Both the position numbers and the translations under genes were made by a program. From positions 1 to 64,000 of the forward strand of contig JACCXH010000066.1 in NCBI GenBank assembly GCA_013697245.1: a DNA stretch of 64,000 bases, given 5' to 3'. This DNA is from Bacteroidota bacterium. GTDB lineage: Bacteria > Bacteroidota > Bacteroidia > B-17B0 > Aurantibacillaceae. The notes below the pieces were generated by a model. It had not been told where the DNA came from. It searched no databases and was given only the letters and a program-made list of their open reading frames with translations. Of the stretch, positions 1 through 6,115 are shown in pieces (the first letter of the stretch is position 1; every line of letters begins with the position of its first letter).

Positions 1-1347
1 GTATAACACCTCGGTGTTTAAATACATACGTTTGCTTAATTGTGCTCTATAAAAAGCTGAAACCAAAACATTGTTTAACCTTACGCCTTCGTATATGCCG
101 GAGCTGTTAGATTTCATTTCATTTGACCTAATACCGTCGGTTAAACGATAAGTTTCAACCACGTTTTTTGAACTGAATAAAAAGCTAGGACTAACTGAAG
201 CTCCAATTTGGTGAGCCGGACTTACTGCATAATAAAATTTAACCGGAACAGCGAAATAGAAAAGCGATTGCGTTGTAATTACCGTATTAGAAGAGGTTGA
301 ACCCAGGCCATACACAGATTTAGAGCTTTCGTAAAATGATTCTTTGATATTACTAATGTTATAAAATTGTGATCCTGCGCTAAAGCCAACTTTTTTATTC
401 ATGAATTTACCGTAGTTAACACCTGCATACCAATTCACGCCTCTTCCATCTTTTCCGTTCTTCGAATCCCAACCTAACAAGAATGCACCACCTGTTTCGG
501 CATTTAAGAAACTTAAGCGTTTTTTTCCTTTACGATGATAATCTTCGTCGTACCAATTGGGAATTTTAAGTGCGCCAAGCTTAACGTTTCTGTTAGAGTA
601 TAAAATATTTAATTTTGAATCTATTCTATTTAGCACATTGTGTTCTAGCAGAACATCGCCATCAAGGATACGTTTAGTTCTTGAACCATCTGCCATTTCG
701 GCTGCATCCGTAACGTTTGAGCTACCATCATCTTTAAGATTTGCAGCGCCTTTGTTACTTGCACCTTTTTTAGAGCCAAAAAGGCTATTTCCTTTTTTGC
801 TGTTAGAAGTTATAGAATTATTTTTCCCAGATGATGAAACATTATCAGCGTTAGAACCGTTAGCTGTTGAATTGTTATCAGCAGAGTTTGTCACTAAAGC
901 ATTTGCTTTATAATCACCAGAATTTACAGAGACTGTTTTATTTACATCATTAGAATTGTTATTGTAATTAGCTAAACCAACAGATTGGTTATTGCTATTG
1001 TTAGAAGCTAATAGGTTATTATCTGAACTGTTTTGAGTAATTGTATTGCCATTTGCACCATGAGCTTGTGCATCTGAACCGGTGTTATTATTTAACGGCG
1101 TATTATCAGCCAATTGGTCTTTAATATCAAACGGGCCCTGTATTTTGTATACAGCAATACTGGCAGATGTAATGCCGAGGAACAATAATCCTAAAAATAA
1201 GAATTTACCCCAACCGCGGCTGGTGGCAAGTCTTCTTTCAGCATCCAATTGCATACTCAGCCTGTTCCAATTTTGCTCATCAAATGGAAATTCCGCTTCA
1301 TCTACTTTTTTCTTGATAATCTTATCAAATTTTTGTTCCTGGTTCAT
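1..1347 (-). CDS. Putative membrane-spanning anti-sigma factor with C-terminal beta-barrel-like domain (3' end cut by window)
   Basis: The frame is open from an ATG at 1347 to the window edge, 449 codons without a stop, so the C-terminus is missing. Residues 1-46 are charged and predicted cytoplasmic; a single hydrophobic helix lies at about 47-68 (WGKFLFLGLLFLGITSA...). Residues 70-250 form a low-complexity Asn/Ser-rich linker. From about 277 onward the sequence has alternating aromatic/polar strands typical of Bacteroidota outer-membrane barrels (for example ETGGAFLLGW, GVNWYAGVNYGKF). It starts 5 bases after the stop of the ECF sigma gene, so the two are an operon. I infer that the N-terminus holds the sigma factor and the C-terminus sits in the outer membrane, as in the dual-membrane anti-sigma (Dma) proteins of Bacteroides. 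An ordinary inner-membrane protein with a periplasmic beta domain is the alternative. Confidence 0.6.
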   Translation of the reverse strand, partial: MNQEQKFDKIIKKKVDEAEFPFDEQNWNRLSMQLDAERRLATSRGWGKFLFLGLLFLGITSASIAVYKIQGPFDIKDQLADNTPLNNNTGSDAQAHGANGNTITQNSSDNNLLASNNSNNQSVGLANYNNNSNDVNKTVSVNSGDYKANALVTNSADNNSTANGSNADNVSSSGKNNSITSNSKKGNSLFGSKKGASNKGAANLKDDGSSNVTDAAEMADGSRTKRILDGDVLLEHNVLNRIDSKLNILYSNRNVKLGALKIPNWYDEDYHRKGKKRLSFLNAETGGAFLLGWDSKNGKDGRGVNWYAGVNYGKFMNKKVGFSAGSQFYNISNIKESFYESSKSVYGLGSTSSNTVITTQSLFYFAVPVKFYYAVSPAHQIGASVSPSFLFSSKNVVETYRLTDGIRSNEMKSNSSGIYEGVRLNNVLVSAFYRAQLSKRMYLNTEVLY

Positions 1348-1352
1348 CTTGT

Positions 1353-1904
1353 TTATACTCTAATTAATATATTTCTTCCAATTTGTTCTTTTAATTTTTC
1401 TCTTGCCGCATTTAAATGCCATTTCGAAGTGCCTTCGCTAATGCCAAGCATTTCGCCTACTTCTTTATGCGAATAACCGTCGATAACATACAAGTTAAAC
1501 ACTTGCTTTGTTGCCTGCGGTAATTTATTTATCTCGTCGTAAATTTGTTTACAGCTAATGTTACTTAGTGCGTCGTTCACATCTGCATAATCTGATGAGT
1601 CGTAATATTCATCAACATAAGTAACGCGTTCTTTCTCGCGTTTTTGTTTTCTGTACTCATCAATTAAAGTGTTCACCATTATACGGCGGATCCAAACTTT
1701 AAAAGGAATTTCAGGTTTGTAAGCACCAATGTTTCTTAAAATTTTAAGAAACCCCATATTTAAAATTTCTGAGGCTGTATCTTTATCTTTGTTGTAACGC
1801 ATGCAAATACTCATTAAGTAACTGTACGATACTTTATACAGTTCATACTCCGCCCTGCGATCCTGCTTTACGCACTTTGCAATAAGTTCCGGAGTAACGT
1901 TCAT
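1353..1904 (-). CDS. ECF-type RNA polymerase sigma factor (sigma-70 family)
   Basis: A 183-residue protein with the two regions of a group 4 sigma factor. Region 2 spans about residues 20-90 (DTASEILNMGFLKILRNI, then PFKVWIRRIMVNTLIDEYRK). Region 4 spans about 120-175 (LPQATKQVFNLYVIDGYSHK followed by EVGEMLGISEGTSKWHLNAA, the helix-turn-helix that reads the -35 side of the promoter). There is no extra C-terminal domain. A TAnnTTTA element at 1934-1941 could drive it. The gene behind it encodes a membrane protein that is probably its regulator. The family assignment is firm; the regulon is unknown. Confidence 0.93.
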   Translation of the reverse strand: MNVTPELIAKCVKQDRRAEYELYKVSYSYLMSICMRYNKDKDTASEILNMGFLKILRNIGAYKPEIPFKVWIRRIMVNTLIDEYRKQKREKERVTYVDEYYDSSDYADVNDALSNISCKQIYDEINKLPQATKQVFNLYVIDGYSHKEVGEMLGISEGTSKWHLNAAREKLKEQIGRNILIRV

Positions 1905-1933
1905 AAATGGTATTTCTTACTATATTATACGTT

Positions 1934-1941
1934 TAAAGTTA
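1934..1941 (-). promoter_or_regulatory. Candidate -7 element of the sigma factor operon
   Basis: The minus strand reads TAACTTTA, one base from the Bacteroidota consensus TAnnTTTG, about 30 bases before the sigma factor start. No clear TTTG was found at the -33 distance. If the operon is autoregulated, the ECF factor itself would use a different motif. Confidence 0.35.
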
Positions 1942-2108
1942 AGTAAAAGTTGGGTAAAACTTAGAATGTAAGTTGTTAAAAATCAGTAAAGTAGGGTGAA
2001 CCATGCAGATAAATGAGTGAAAGATAAAAACCAGAAGACCCTAACCTAAGTTACAGGTTCGCCAAAAGGCAGCTAACAATACTAAAATAAGATCGATTAA
2101 GAGAGAAC

Positions 2109-2954
2109 TTAGGCTTTAAACATTTTCAACAATGCAGCCAATTTTTCTTTTAATTCGGTGCGCGGAATTATTTTATCAAGGAAACCATGTTCCAATACAA
2201 ACTCAGCAGTTTGAAAACCTTTTGGAAGGTCTTTACCAATAGTTTCTTTTACAACACGCGGGCCGGCAAAACCAATTAACGAACCCGGCTCGGCAATATT
2301 AAGATCGCCTAACATGGCATAACTTGCGGTAACACCACCCGTTGTAGGATCGGTTAATAAAGAGATGTAGGGGATACCGGCTTTAGCCAACTGACTTAAT
2401 TTTGCAGATGTTTTTGCCATTTGCATTAATGAATAAGCGGCTTCCATCATACGCGCGCCACCACTTTTTGAAATGATCAATAAAGGTGTTTTTGTTTTAA
2501 GACAGTGATCAATTGCGCGTGCAATTTTTTCGCCCACAACGCTTCCCATACTGCCGCCTATGAAACTAAAATCCATACAACAAATAACAAGATCGTTACC
2601 GTTTACCTTGCCGTGAGCGCTTCTTAAAGCATCTTTTAAGCCCGTTTTTTTAATGGTATCGGTTAATCTATCGGTATATTTTTTTGTATCTGTAAAGTCA
2701 AGCGGGTCGCCACTGACAAGATTTTCGTTCAATTCGGTAAATTGGTTGTCATCAAAAATAACCTCAAAATATTCTTTGCTTCCAATACGTTCGTGGTGCG
2801 CACACTCGATACAAACATATTTATTGGCGGCATGTTCCTGGGCAGTATTTATTTTTTTGCACGAAGGGCACTTGTACCATAATCCTTCAGGAGTTTCCTT
2901 CTTTTCTTTTGTAGAAGTTGTAATACCTGACTTTAATCTTTTAAACCAACCCAT
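2109..2954 (-). CDS. accD: Acetyl-CoA carboxylase, carboxyltransferase subunit beta
   Basis: This 281-residue protein is the beta half of the carboxyltransferase that moves CO2 from biotin to acetyl-CoA to make malonyl-CoA, the first step of fatty acid synthesis. The N-terminal zinc ribbon is visible as C29-x2-C32 and C48-x2-C51. The crotonase-like core contains the glycine-rich stretches [17 protein letters not shown] and [11 protein letters not shown] and the [15 protein letters not shown] segment. Length and order match the family. It lies 70 bases downstream of fbaB on the same strand. The partner accA is not in the window. Confidence 0.97.
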
Positions 2955-2975
2955 CTTTTGAAAATTATAATTTAT

Positions 2976-3009
2976 AAATTATAAATGTTGAATTGAACAT
3001 TTATAATTT
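2976..3009. repeat. Perfect AT-rich inverted repeat between accD and fbaB
   Basis: Arms AAATTATAAATGTT (2976-2989) and AACATTTATAATTT (2996-3009) are exact reverse complements around a 6-base loop. Flanking bases repeat the same words (ATAATTTATAAATTATAA, and TTCAACATTT just after). There is no T-run long enough for a strong terminator, so it could be a processing hairpin or a dispersed short repeat. Confidence 0.7.
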
Positions 3010-3024
3010 TTCATTCAACATTTC

Positions 3025-4080
3025 TTATGCTATTGTAATTGACTTGTCCAAATACACATCCTGAACGGCATTCAGTAATTGAATACCTTCTGCAATGGGT
3101 TTTTGAAACGCTTTTCTGCCGCTAATTAAACCTTGCCCTCCTGCTCTTTTATTAATTACAGCAGTTGTAACAGCTTCTGAAAGATCGCTGGCACCTTTAC
3201 TTTCGCCGCCACTATTAATTAAGCCCATGCGGCCCATATAACAATTAGCAACCTGATAACGGCATAGATCTATCGGGTGATCGGTAGTTAATTCAGAATA
3301 TACTTTTGGATGTGTTTTACCAAAATTAATGGCGTTATAACCACCATTTTTGTCGGATAATTTTTGTTTAATGATATCGGCTTGTATGGTAACACCTAAA
3401 TGATTTGCCTGAGAAGAAAGATCGGCTGCAGTATGATAATCAACTCCATCTTTTTTAAAGGCATTATTACGCGTATAGCACCATAAAATAGTAGCCATGC
3501 CTAATTCGTGCGCTCTTGCAAAAGCAGCGGCTACTTCAACGATCTGGCGCGACGATTCGGGTGATCCAAAATAAATTGTTGCGCCAACAGCTACAGCTCC
3601 CATATTCCAGGCTTCTTCTACAGTACCAAACATGATCTGATCGAATTTGTTTGGGTAAGTTAAAAATTCGTTATGATTTATCTTAACAATAAAAGGAATT
3701 TTATGTGCATATTTTCTTGATACAGAAGCTAATACGCCAAAAGTAGAGGCTACTGCATTACATCCGCCATCCATAGCAAGTTTTACGATGTTCTCGCTGT
3801 CAAAATAAATTGGGTTTGGCGCGAAACTCGCACCCGCACTGTGTTCAATACCCTGGTCAACCGGTAAAATGCTCATATAGCCCGTGCCTGCTAATCTGCC
3901 GTTATTATATAATTGGTTTAAGCTTCTTAATACCTGTGGATTGCGGTTTGAAGGAGAGAACATACGATCTACAAAATCATGACCAGGCAAATGAAGGTGT
4001 TCTTTTGAAATGGTTTTGCAGGTATGGTTTAAAAGATCGTTGGCATTACTGCCCAATAATTCTACTATTTTGGTTGTCAT
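3025..4080 (-). CDS. fbaB: Class I fructose-bisphosphate aldolase (DhnA/FbaB type)
   Basis: A 351-residue protein of the archaeal/bacterial class I aldolase family, which splits fructose 1,6-bisphosphate into glyceraldehyde 3-phosphate and dihydroxyacetone phosphate through a lysine Schiff base, without metal. Recognisable segments are [19 protein letters not shown] near residue 70, [13 protein letters not shown] near 130, the [13 protein letters not shown] strand near 160, and [17 protein letters not shown] near the C-terminus, which forms a phosphate-binding loop in the family. Length matches E. coli FbaB. A TATATTTG element lies 22 bases upstream of the ATG. It may be cotranscribed with accD. 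Confidence 0.93.
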
Positions 4081-4101
4081 GAAACTTAAAATTTAAGGAA
4101 G

Positions 4102-4109
4102 CAAATATA
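4102..4109 (-). promoter_or_regulatory. Candidate -7 promoter element for fbaB
   Basis: The minus strand reads TATATTTG, an exact match to TAnnTTTG, ending 21 bases before the fbaB ATG. No convincing TTTG is seen at the -33 distance. Confidence 0.55.
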
Positions 4110-4206
4110 CAGAAAGTAGTTGAATTTTTAATAAAAAAAAACGAAGCGTACTTACTGCAATAAGGCCTTGATAGTTTTTATTTTAAAATATTTGCTTCAG
4201 GATATA

Positions 4207-4241
4207 ACAAAAAACCCCGTCCCGGTTAAACCGAGACAGGG
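4207..4241 (-). terminator. Rho-independent terminator after the Sia-like cluster
   Basis: On the minus strand an 11-pair stem (CCCTGTCTCGG with CCGGGACGGGG, two G-U pairs) with a TTTAA loop is followed by TTTTTTGTTA. It lies about 25 bases past the stop of the SiaC-like gene and separates this unit from fbaB. Confidence 0.9.
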
Positions 4242-4265
4242 TAATATATTTAGAGAATTAAAATA

Positions 4266-4646
4266 TTATTCGTTAACCATTACCATTTTAAATGGTACGT
4301 TGATGATGGCCTGGTAATCTTCACCGGCTTCTAACATATCTTCATCATCTTCTTCGTAATGCCAGTTAATAGTAACAGCGCTACCACCTTTATTAATACC
4401 TTCTAATTTCTTAAATACATCTAAGATGCATTTTGAAGATGATGTATTAAAATATTCTAACTGCACATTAACAGTTGTAGCAGTTTTTGCAGCGCTAGAA
4501 TATTTATCCAGTGCATCAACTAACGGTTTATAAAATTCAATAGAATTCTCAGGAATTGAACGTCCTTTGATCTCTAAAATTCCACCATTTAAGTCAAAAC
4601 TGATACTTGGTGTTTTTGGTGTGCCTTCGATAGCGTATTTGTCCAT
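4266..4646 (-). CDS. SiaC-like regulatory phosphoprotein (DUF1987 family)
   Basis: A 126-residue cytoplasmic protein with the family pattern of an N-terminal beta sheet (TPSISFDLNGGILEIKGRSI) followed by SIEFYKPLVDALDKY and the central LEYFNTSSSKCILDVFKKLE. In Pseudomonas SiaC the residue phosphorylated by SiaB and dephosphorylated by SiaA is Thr68; here Thr68 sits in the matching FNTSSS segment. Phosphorylation decides which partner it binds. It follows the SiaB-like kinase by 11 bases and is the last gene before the terminator. Its output partner is unknown here, as no diguanylate cyclase (SiaD) lies in the window. Family call is good; the target is open. Confidence 0.85.
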   Translation of the reverse strand: MDKYAIEGTPKTPSISFDLNGGILEIKGRSIPENSIEFYKPLVDALDKYSSAAKTATTVNVQLEYFNTSSSKCILDVFKKLEGINKGGSAVTINWHYEEDDEDMLEAGEDYQAIINVPFKMVMVNE

Positions 4647-4657
4647 AATTGTAATTT

Positions 4658-5230
4658 TTAATTTTGCTGTGATATTTTTATATTGAGTGTAAAGAAAGAA
4701 ACTTTATTGTCAATTTCCAAAAAATCGTACTCTAATTTTTCACCAGTTTTTCTGGCAATGTCAATCATCCCTAATCCGCCTCCGCCTTTTAAAGACATTT
4801 CGCCGTTATTAAGCACTTTTTTATAGTATTCTTTAAGTTCTTCTTTAGATAATGAATTTACTTCATCTAAGCGGCTTTTAAGGCCATTTATATTCTCATT
4901 AAGGATATAATTGCCGGTAAAAATAGAGTATTTTCCATCCAATTTACCAATCATAAAAATAGCAGAACGGTTATTGTCGCCTGTAAAATTAGAGGAATCG
5001 TCTAAATGATGATATAGGTTCTGTAAACATTCTACCAAAACATTGTAAACCTTCTTTTTCATTTTAGGTTCTTCCTGCATGTTTTCCATCTTATTCTCCA
5101 TTATCTGAAGAATAGAAGTTAAAAGGTCCGACGTAATTTCTCCTTTAAATGACAGCAAAATATTATTTCGCTCCATTTTATTATATATATCAAATACGTC
5201 TACCATTTTTCGGTCTGTCAGCATTTCCAT
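4658..5230 (-). CDS. SiaB-like protein kinase (GHKL-type fold)
   Basis: A 190-residue protein without membrane segments. The kinase features are the helix VYNVLVECLQNLYHHLDD around residues 64-81, with the E...N pattern of a GHKL N-box, and the Gly-rich ATP-lid region MSLKGGGGLGMIDIARKTG near residue 150. In Pseudomonas the homologue phosphorylates SiaC on threonine. The gene lies 6 bases after the lipoprotein gene and 11 bases before the SiaC-like gene, so all three share a transcript. A second ATG two codons in (residue 3) is also possible as start. Confidence 0.82.
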   Translation of the reverse strand: MEMLTDRKMVDVFDIYNKMERNNILLSFKGEITSDLLTSILQIMENKMENMQEEPKMKKKVYNVLVECLQNLYHHLDDSSNFTGDNNRSAIFMIGKLDGKYSIFTGNYILNENINGLKSRLDEVNSLSKEELKEYYKKVLNNGEMSLKGGGGLGMIDIARKTGEKLEYDFLEIDNKVSFFTLNIKISQQN

Positions 5231-5236
5231 TTGGTT

Positions 5237-6115
5237 TTACTTCAATTTAAATGCTACAGTGCTTCCGTTAACAGTAAAGGTTGCGTCATCGTCGCACACA
5301 CCGTTTCCAAAATCCACGGTCCTTGTTTTGAAGCCATCCGGAGTTAATTCTAAAATTCCTTTATCGATAAACTGACATAATTTATGTTTAATTAGTGGTG
5401 AGCCTTGAGGAATATTAACTGTAAAAGGTTTTCCTACGCGGTTAACACCATTGGCAGTTCCAAAAACTTCAACTACAGGATCATTTCCAACAGGATTACC
5501 TTTTCCGTAATTAGTAAAGGTTTTATCAAAATTGTATTTAATGGTCCAGTTTGGATTTGAACAAACACCGTTGATTAATTTAATATTAAATGTTGTGCTG
5601 TTAGATGTTGTACCTAAAGTTGTGACTACCATACTATCGCATGAATAACTAATACCGGAAGCTTTATGATTGATCAATTTAAGAATCATCTGACTACCAA
5701 CTAATTTCAAAGGGCCTGTTATTTTAATTATCCAGCTACCTGATCTTACTTTTCCATCAGTAAAAGAGGCAGGACAAGATGAAGGGGCAATATTTAAACC
5801 AAACACAGGAGGAACAATATATTTAAAAGTGGCCGTTAAGTTTGTATCAGCAGTTGCCCTGTTTAACCACGTTAAAGTATCGCATGGTGAAGGAGGACTT
5901 AATAACCTTCCATTATTACAACCTGTTCCTTTAGTATTAATAGCATGTCCGTTTGCTGCAGGAACAATCATCATATATTCCTGATCTGCCACAGCATTAT
6001 CAACAGAAGATTGTGTTTCATTATCCACTTCAACAGTTTCTTTTTTGTGACAACCTACAAAAAATAAAGATGTAACACAGCTAAGTATTAAAACTATTTT
6101 ATATACTTTTTTCAT
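5237..6115 (-). CDS. Uncharacterised lipoprotein inside the Sia-like operon
   Basis: A 292-residue protein with a signal peptide ending in the lipobox FVGC (Cys22), so it should be lipid-anchored after export. The mature part is predicted beta-rich and contains several cysteines (GTGCNNGRLL, SPCDTLTWL, APSSCPASF, GVCSNPNW, GVCDDDATF), which could form disulfides. I recognise no named domain. Its own TATATTTG element lies just upstream at 6136-6143. Position between the phosphatase sensor and the kinase suggests a role in signal input or as a target, but this is inference. Confidence 0.75.
   Translation of the reverse strand: MKKVYKIVLILSCVTSLFFVGCHKKETVEVDNETQSSVDNAVADQEYMMIVPAANGHAINTKGTGCNNGRLLSPPSPCDTLTWLNRATADTNLTATFKYIVPPVFGLNIAPSSCPASFTDGKVRSGSWIIKITGPLKLVGSQMILKLINHKASGISYSCDSMVVTTLGTTSNSTTFNIKLINGVCSNPNWTIKYNFDKTFTNYGKGNPVGNDPVVEVFGTANGVNRVGKPFTVNIPQGSPLIKHKLCQFIDKGILELTPDGFKTRTVDFGNGVCDDDATFTVNGSTVAFKLK

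What the first reader, a model, noticed from the sequence alone, without database searches (positions are those of the whole stretch)
1..1904. ECF sigma factor paired with a candidate dual-membrane anti-sigma protein
The gene behind the sigma factor has a short charged N-terminus, one helix, about 180 residues of Asn/Ser-rich linker and then barrel-like strands. Sequence shows this order directly. Established knowledge: Dma-type anti-sigma proteins in Bacteroides span both membranes in this way and link outer-membrane state to a sigma factor. Inference: this is a related system in another Bacteroidota lineage, with a distinct Asn-rich linker.
Basis: partly seen in the sequence, partly recalled or inferred. 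Interest (0 to 1): 0.75.

Follow-up and report, generated by a model that had tools for sequence, protein, structure and literature searches.

The report
Two-membrane anti-sigma switch with lipoprotein
A gene-switch protein of a Bacteroidota bacterium is predicted to reach from inside the cell through both membranes to the cell surface; it belongs to a recently described family, but here it travels with a partner lipoprotein that we did not find described with it.

Summary
The window starts at a contig end; the missing 32 residues lie on another contig of the same genome (22-nt overlap), giving a 481-aa protein: charged N-terminus, one membrane helix, ~200 disordered residues, and a C-terminal barrel that AlphaFold models well in an ortholog (block pLDDT 81-96) and that matches OmpA/NspA-type barrels. 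Profile comparison finds N-terminus and barrel homologous, in the same order, to barrel proteins beside sigma factors in NigD-bearing genomes, which I take as Reo/Dma-type. The sigma factors form one clade, apart from nine other ECF factors of this genome. So this is a distant Dma/Reo-type pair. A CCAAC-N17-CGT promoter-like element precedes the sigma gene in 31 of 31 close loci and 26 of 40 others. The tether's Asn-richness is not conserved. Sigma contact was modelled without a confident result. New variant of a known kind: a three-gene sigma / dual-membrane anti-sigma / PKD-lipoprotein module.

The parts
1353..1904 (-). ECF sigma factor gene, 183 aa, first gene of the operon
   Evidence: ORF; Pfam Sigma70_r2 and r4_2; clade with sigma factors of other barrel anti-sigma candidates
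1..1347 (-). dual-membrane anti-sigma candidate, residues 1-449 of 481; last 32 residues on contig C20 of the same genome
   Evidence: ORF open at contig end; continuation by 22-nt overlap
1210..1347 (-). residues 1-46: putative cytoplasmic sigma-binding region
   Evidence: two helices in the ortholog model; Trp27 invariant in 34 rows; profile match to N-termini of five proteins from NigD-bearing genomes, E 6e-5
1138..1212 (-). residues 46-70: single inner-membrane helix
   Evidence: hydropathy peak 2.09 at 49-67; helix 46-70 in model
514..1137 (-). residues 71-278: disordered periplasmic tether, 20% Asn, 13% Ser
   Evidence: pLDDT<50 over most of it in the ortholog; composition
1..513 (-). 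residues 279-449: outer-membrane barrel, without its last strand region
   Evidence: block pLDDT 81-96 in the ortholog model; OmpA/NspA-type match
1928..1953 (-). promoter-like element CCAAC-N17-CGTA, 23 nt before the sigma start codon
   Evidence: same spacing in 30 of 31 close loci (CGTA) or 31 of 31 (CGT); summed expectation from mononucleotide shuffles 0.01-0.02 loci

Best explanation
This is a Dma/Reo-type sigma/anti-sigma pair and the first two genes of a three-gene module. Shown: the gene order sigma / TM-plus-tether-plus-barrel protein / PKD-domain lipoprotein, its wide conservation, the shared promoter-like element, and profile-level homology of both ends of the barrel protein to proteins from NigD-bearing genomes. 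Inferred: the N-terminus holds the sigma factor at the inner membrane while the C-terminal barrel is inserted in the outer membrane by the BAM machine, the disordered tether joining the two. When the barrel is disturbed or not inserted (envelope damage, BAM failure), the tether region is cut or pulled, the N-terminus is lost, and the freed sigma factor transcribes its own operon and a small set of exported proteins from CCAAC-N17-CGT promoters. The lipoprotein, made in the same operon, is most likely an outer-membrane partner that reads or resets the barrel (sensor or feedback), somewhat less likely only an effector.
For: Full 481-aa protein recovered. Anatomy in model; OmpA-like barrel. 32 of 32 loci analysed carry the three genes adjacent (the sigma gene is cut by a contig start in L019 and L038). 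Lipoprotein: lipobox Cys invariant in 34 rows, PKD_4 1.9e-17 in L010. A search with the lipoprotein alone gave 47 loci outside the genus with matches at E<=4.3e-31; 46 have sigma and barrel protein upstream (40 of 40; 6 of 7), from 16 families. Second copy of the whole module in this genome on C57. Profile homology. Sigma clade support 0.927. Promoter element 31 of 31 close loci, 26 of 40 outside. Sigma-TM-tether-barrel fusions in L223 and, by a weak barrel match and reading, L225. Literature: Dma anatomy and ECF21 pairing (PMC13088901: abstract, introduction and passages); EcfO-Reo induced by the toxin BcpT and by Bd-A (PMC13114119 passages); bacteroidetocin A inhibits BamA (PMC9308784 passages).
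Against: The sigma plus N-terminus model had pTM 0.48; pLDDT rose for the second N-terminal helix but fell for the first, so contact is not shown. No experiment exists for this lineage in what I saw. No evidence here on proteases or on what moves the tether. The element CCAAC-N15..19-CGT is absent upstream of 5 of 5 comparator sigma genes. Genome-wide the element is only weakly enriched over the reversed control: 11 vs 6 and, refined, 7 vs 2 in the own genome, 19 vs 11 in four relatives. NigD, the known Dma1/Reo output, was not found in this genome. Of 8 NigD neighbourhoods read, only 4 hold a barrel pair. The lipoprotein's place in the signalling is inferred from linkage only. L264 has the lipoprotein without the other two.
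Confidence: 0.8

Rival explanations
1. The lipoprotein is only a regulon output (a co-transcribed envelope effector, as NigD is for Dma1/Reo), with no role in sensing.
For: Dma1 and Reo regulons include NigD lipoproteins (PMC13088901 and PMC13114119 passages); in L221 and L222 a NigD lipoprotein lies next to the sigma gene; a second promoter-like element stands 8-19 nt after the lipoprotein stop in 13 of 70 loci tested (L026 is too short there to show one), so likely outputs do sit nearby.
Against: Linkage is near-absolute across 16 families (46 of 47 loci) and in both copies of this genome, more than I would expect for a mere output; of eight genomes of the genus in both searches, the two that lack the barrel protein (G027, G028) lack the full-length lipoprotein too.
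Confidence: 0.4
2. The second gene is an ordinary single-pass anti-sigma protein of the FecR/RsiW kind and the C-terminal strands are a periplasmic beta domain, not an outer-membrane barrel.
For: No Pfam family matches the window protein at E<=1 and none reaches its cut-off in three homologues; in L227 the TM protein beside the sigma gene has no barrel and a separate gene that reads like a barrel follows.
Against: Barrel modelled at block pLDDT 81-96 and the top structural matches are transmembrane barrels (OmpA, NspA, OprF, PagL, OmpW); the L021 homologue scores 26 bits against OMP_b-brl_2, one bit under its cut-off; no FecR match.
Confidence: 0.06
3. The barrel is a receptor for a specific extracellular ligand (cell-surface signalling, as FecA-FecR), not a reporter of outer-membrane integrity.
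For: PKD domains are often found in surface-exposed binding proteins (general knowledge, no call); one candidate output has a T9SS sorting tail.
Against: No receptor plug or FecR domain was found in the module's proteins; relatives respond to toxins and a BAM inhibitor.
Confidence: 0.2

Closest known systems
Dma1/Das1 and Dma2/Das2 of Bacteroides thetaiotaomicron (PMC13088901)
   Same: Sigma-binding N-terminus, TM helix, long disordered tether, C-terminal barrel, ECF sigma gene next door; Dma2 too is in a three-gene operon
   Different: Third gene there is BT_1557 (annotated DUF4943, function unknown), here a PKD lipoprotein; NigD, the Dma1 output, not found here
EcfO-Reo of Bacteroides fragilis and Phocaeicola vulgatus (PMC13114119, PMC9308784)
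   Same: Anti-sigma predicted to span from cytoplasm to surface with a barrel; N-terminus and barrel homologous to NigD-linked proteins that I take as Reo/Dma1-type
   Different: NigD regulon; no PKD lipoprotein mentioned in the passages seen; similarity only at profile level; promoter element not shared by the five comparator loci
Dma3 (described as having the sigma domain at its own N-terminus, PMC13088901)
   Same: L223, and by reading L225, show sigma, TM, tether and barrel in one chain
   Different: The window system keeps sigma and anti-sigma as two genes with a separate N-terminal region
ECF/anti-sigma pair with CGT -10 promoters and T9SS genes in Flavobacterium psychrophilum (motif SM6, PMC9723704 passages)
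   Same: CGT -10 box and an autoregulated-looking ECF/anti-sigma pair; one candidate output here has a T9SS sorting tail
   Different: Whether that anti-sigma has a barrel or a PKD partner was not tested

Membership tests
Dma (dual membrane-spanning anti-sigma) family | N-terminal region, one TM helix, long disordered tether, C-terminal barrel, in this order | tested here: met
   (predicted anatomy)
Dma (dual membrane-spanning anti-sigma) family | Homology to Dma/Reo proteins in the end domains | tested here: met
   hhalign E 6e-5 and 6e-7 (single comparisons) against five proteins, four of them beside NigD genes; swapped controls 0.57-0.75.
Dma (dual membrane-spanning anti-sigma) family | Encoded next to an ECF sigma factor gene | tested here: met
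Dma (dual membrane-spanning anti-sigma) family | N-terminus binds and inhibits the cognate sigma factor | tested here: inconclusive
   one-chain model pTM 0.48; no experiment
Dma (dual membrane-spanning anti-sigma) family | Physically spans inner and outer membrane | not testable with these tools
   predicted topology only
ECF21 sigma group | Membership by the group's own model | not testable with these tools
   no ECF21 model was at hand; only a proxy: same clade as the sigma factors of the five comparator pairs, support 0.927 against nine other ECFs of this genome
FecR-type anti-sigma (cell-surface signalling) | FecR domain in the anti-sigma protein | tested here: not met
   no Pfam family at E<=1
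PKD-domain lipoprotein (third gene) | Lipobox cysteine and PKD domain | tested here: met
   Cys18 invariant in 34 rows; PKD_4 over cut-off in L010 and L037, under it in L021

The most novel reading that the evidence does not exclude
A three-component transenvelope switch: the PKD lipoprotein is a true signalling subunit that docks on or in the barrel at the outer membrane and sets whether the dual-membrane anti-sigma holds its sigma factor, comparable in logic (not in kinship) to a lipoprotein/barrel sensor such as RcsF with OmpA (recalled), and spread through at least 16 families of one class of Bacteroidota.
Probability: 0.35. Interest if true: 0.75.

Novelty: new variant of a known kind. 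Interest (0 to 1): 0.55.

Why it matters
Anti-sigma proteins that reach from cytoplasm to outer membrane were described only recently and, in the papers seen here, were studied in gut Bacteroides and Phocaeicola. This shows the design in a separate lineage (the named relatives that carry it are all metagenome-assembled), with a constant lipoprotein partner and a defined promoter-like element, so the question of what the barrel senses gets a concrete, testable second component and a few candidate outputs.

Tried and rejected
Expecting the barrel to be recognised by Pfam or NCBIfam failed. The idea that the Asn-rich tether is a special feature was rejected: Asn 3-23%, length 118-235 residues. 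FecR-type signalling was set aside for lack of the domain. Searching 11 genomes (7 of them NigD-bearing) with the whole-protein profile gave weak hits, best 6.6e-9 in a genome not on the NigD list; their sigma neighbours were then read. Of 8 NigD neighbourhoods fetched (the ninth match, G128, was not), 4 hold a sigma plus barrel pair (L221, L222, L234, L237), L236 holds a sigma with a short 182-aa TM protein, and L233, L235 and L238 gave no sigma or barrel match with my profiles.

A combined alignment of sigma, N-terminus-only and read-through rows was discarded because N-terminus-only rows were misplaced onto the sigma factor; a reduced set of 61 rows was used (12 read-through, 46 of 58 sigma rows, 3 N-terminus rows), and its model was inconclusive. 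I had two structure jobs and used the second on sigma contact, so the barrel-lipoprotein complex was not modelled. A phylum-wide draw of 395 genomes at E<=1e-25 gave the full-length lipoprotein only in the own genome; the one other hit (G471) covers only positions 125-275, about the PKD part. The class draw (6 candidates per genome scored) has matches at E<=4.3e-31 in 50 of 295 genomes by my count of its listing. So the module looks patchy and restricted to part of the class. The promoter element alone does not define a regulon. Own-genome census: of 20 further sigma loci fetched (of 26 matches), my profile found the sigma in 15 and none of these shows the module; 5 gave no sigma hit and were not resolved; the gene after the L146 sigma has a weak match to the barrel-protein profile (0.0048), not followed. 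Paper searches that found no description of the PKD lipoprotein partner: (open-licence library only; the 2024 PNAS Dma1 paper is not held, and is known here only through citing papers). PMC12045153 mentions Dma only in its reference list.

Full report
WHAT IS IN THE SEQUENCE. On the minus strand a 183-aa ECF sigma factor (1904..1353) is followed after 5 nt by an ORF that runs off base 1. The window is contig C43 from its first base, so the gene is cut by the assembly. Orthologs show that only about 30 residues are missing. A search of the own genome with the ortholog's next gene found it on contig C20; the end of C20 holds the missing C-terminus and overlaps the window's end by 22 nt. The full protein has 481 residues.

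ANATOMY. Residues 1-48 are charged, a hydrophobic helix follows (peak 49-67), then about 200 residues of low-complexity tether, then the C-terminal strands. The AlphaFold model of the L010 ortholog (34 rows) has helices at 3-17, 24-43 and 46-70, pLDDT under 50 for 73-235, and a barrel at 274-475 with block means 81-96. Foldseek puts OmpA's transmembrane domain first (1bxw, E 1.3e-8); VIA-align gives NspA Z 16.8 (154 residues, rmsd 3.0), OmpA 1qjp Z 16.4 (135, 2.6) and a designed barrel Z 17.8 (117, 1.7). Against the window protein the N-terminus (42% in distant members) and barrel (38%) are kept, the tether is not (10%), and its Asn content varies from 3 to 23%: length and disorder seem to matter, not Asn.

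A THIRD GENE. Searches gave 41 loci besides the window's own (L010-L050). I analysed 32; seven are the same contigs as others (L039-L043, L045, L046), and L049 and L050 are weak sigma matches without a barrel-protein match. In 32 of 32 the barrel gene is followed by a homologous lipoprotein of 367-396 aa (some start codons are uncertain); in L019 and L038 the sigma gene is cut by a contig end. The lipobox Cys is invariant in 34 rows, and PKD domains are present. The second copy of the set in this genome, on C57, has the same three genes in the same order, overlapping. Searching 295 genomes of the class with the lipoprotein profile only gave 48 matches outside the genus at E<=4.3e-31, in 47 loci; 46 of these 47 have sigma and barrel genes upstream, in 16 families, the window's own included (40 of 40, 6 of 7; the exception is L264). 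Of eight genomes of the genus in both searches, the six with the barrel protein have the lipoprotein and the two without it (G027, G028) lack it. In a phylum-wide draw of 395 genomes only the own genome had a full-length match, so the module is not general.

RELATION TO Dma/Reo. The Dma family is described as N-terminal anti-sigma domain, TM helix, disordered tether and C-terminal barrel, next to ECF21 sigma factors (PMC13088901: abstract, introduction, passages). Reo is described as spanning five compartments and, with EcfO, as induced by the toxins BcpT and Bd-A (PMC13114119 passages); bacteroidetocin A inhibits BamA (PMC9308784 passages). To test kinship rather than resemblance I located NigD-bearing genomes (8 of 295; unnamed, I take most as Bacteroidales) and read ECF loci there. 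L221 and L222 have NigD, sigma and a TM-tether-barrel protein side by side; L234 and L237 have such a pair divergent from NigD; L224 is a further pair; four other NigD neighbourhoods showed no such pair. L223, and by reading L225, are fusions of sigma, TM, tether and barrel, like the reported Dma3. Against the five unfused proteins our N-terminal profile aligns over 34 columns (E 6e-5, probability 65) with the conserved Trp in register, and our barrel over 150 columns (E 6e-7, probability 92); swapped comparisons give 0.57-0.75. These E-values are for a single comparison. A FastTree tree of 91 sigma factors separates 82 sigma factors from 9 other ECFs of this genome with support 0.927. The 82 are 72 of the PKD-lipoprotein set (clade support 0.718), the five comparators, and five loci found through N-terminal or tether matches, of which L227 has its barrel-like gene separate and the others were not checked for a barrel.

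PROMOTER AND OUTPUTS. CCAAC-N17-CGTA lies within 150 nt upstream of the sigma gene in 30 of 31 close loci, in 24 of these 30 at 48-54 nt before the start codon (summed expectation from mononucleotide shuffles 0.01), and in 12 of 40 outside; with CGT alone 31 of 31 and 26 of 40 (expectation 0.02 each). The close set is the window plus 30 of the 32 loci above, L019 and L038 dropped; genus is not known for L044, L047 and L048 in it. The same element stands 8-19 nt after the lipoprotein stop in 13 of 70 loci and in the own genome on C20. It precedes a 174-176-aa protein with a hydrophobic N-terminus in G000, G006, G019 and G021; in G007 the next ORF found is a different 217-aa one. A third conserved site precedes a 284-287-aa protein in G000, G006 and G021, which in G000 has a T9SS sorting tail (Por_Secre_tail 2.3e-8). 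The pattern is not strongly enriched genome-wide (11 vs 6 reversed; refined 7 vs 2 in G000; 19 vs 11 in four relatives), so a regulon beyond these sites is not claimed. In F. psychrophilum a CGT -10 motif is found at T9SS genes and an ECF/anti-sigma pair (PMC9723704 passages). The five comparator loci lack the element.

MECHANISM. Most likely the N-terminus tethers the sigma factor to the inner membrane while the barrel sits in the outer membrane; disturbance of the barrel or of its insertion releases the sigma factor, by cleavage or by strain on the tether (inferred). The induction of EcfO-Reo by a BamA inhibitor fits a barrel that reports its own assembly. The lipoprotein is either a sensing/feedback partner or an output; linkage favours a partner but does not prove it. 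Sigma contact was tried in one chain by reading the sigma stop codon in 12 in-frame loci: pTM 0.48, second N-terminal helix better (about 65 alone, about 84 here), first worse: inconclusive.

VERDICT. Observation confirmed; interpretation supported at the level of homology and anatomy, not of function. The kind is known from papers of 2022-2026. New here, as far as the searches show, are the constant PKD lipoprotein partner and the promoter element, in a lineage separate from the gut genera studied so far.

Noticed in passing
window 4266-6115 (-): SiaC (PF09345) and DUF6272 genes plus a lipoprotein-like gene, preceded in relative L060 by a SpoIIE-type phosphatase: a SiaABC-like partner-switch set two genes away from the sigma operon, in the same order in L060.
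   Followed up: partly
L059 (own genome, contig C57) 4234-11994: The paralogous three-gene module lies downstream of genes that read like an OmpA-family protein, a PorP/SprF-like protein and a large secreted protein (from reading, no family search): possibly a T9SS/gliding neighbourhood.
   Followed up: no
L227 (G076) 1465-3462: Split form: sigma, then a 244-aa TM protein without barrel, then a separate 269-aa gene that reads like an outer-membrane barrel.
   Followed up: no
L223, L225: Chains of 547 and 567 aa with sigma, TM helix, tether and barrel-like end, resembling Dma3; the TM helix follows the sigma domain directly with no separate N-terminal binding region.
   Followed up: partly
L116 (G238:C9): Two PKD lipoprotein matches in tandem on one strand behind one sigma/anti-sigma pair.
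   Followed up: no
L184 1500-2408: Promoter-like element 27 nt before a gene with a T9SS sorting tail, found before the like gene in G006 (L251) and G021 (L256).
   Followed up: partly
L236 (G141) 3069-5000 of the reverse strand: NigD next to a sigma factor with a short 182-aa TM protein and no barrel: NigD is not exclusive to barrel pairs.
   Followed up: no
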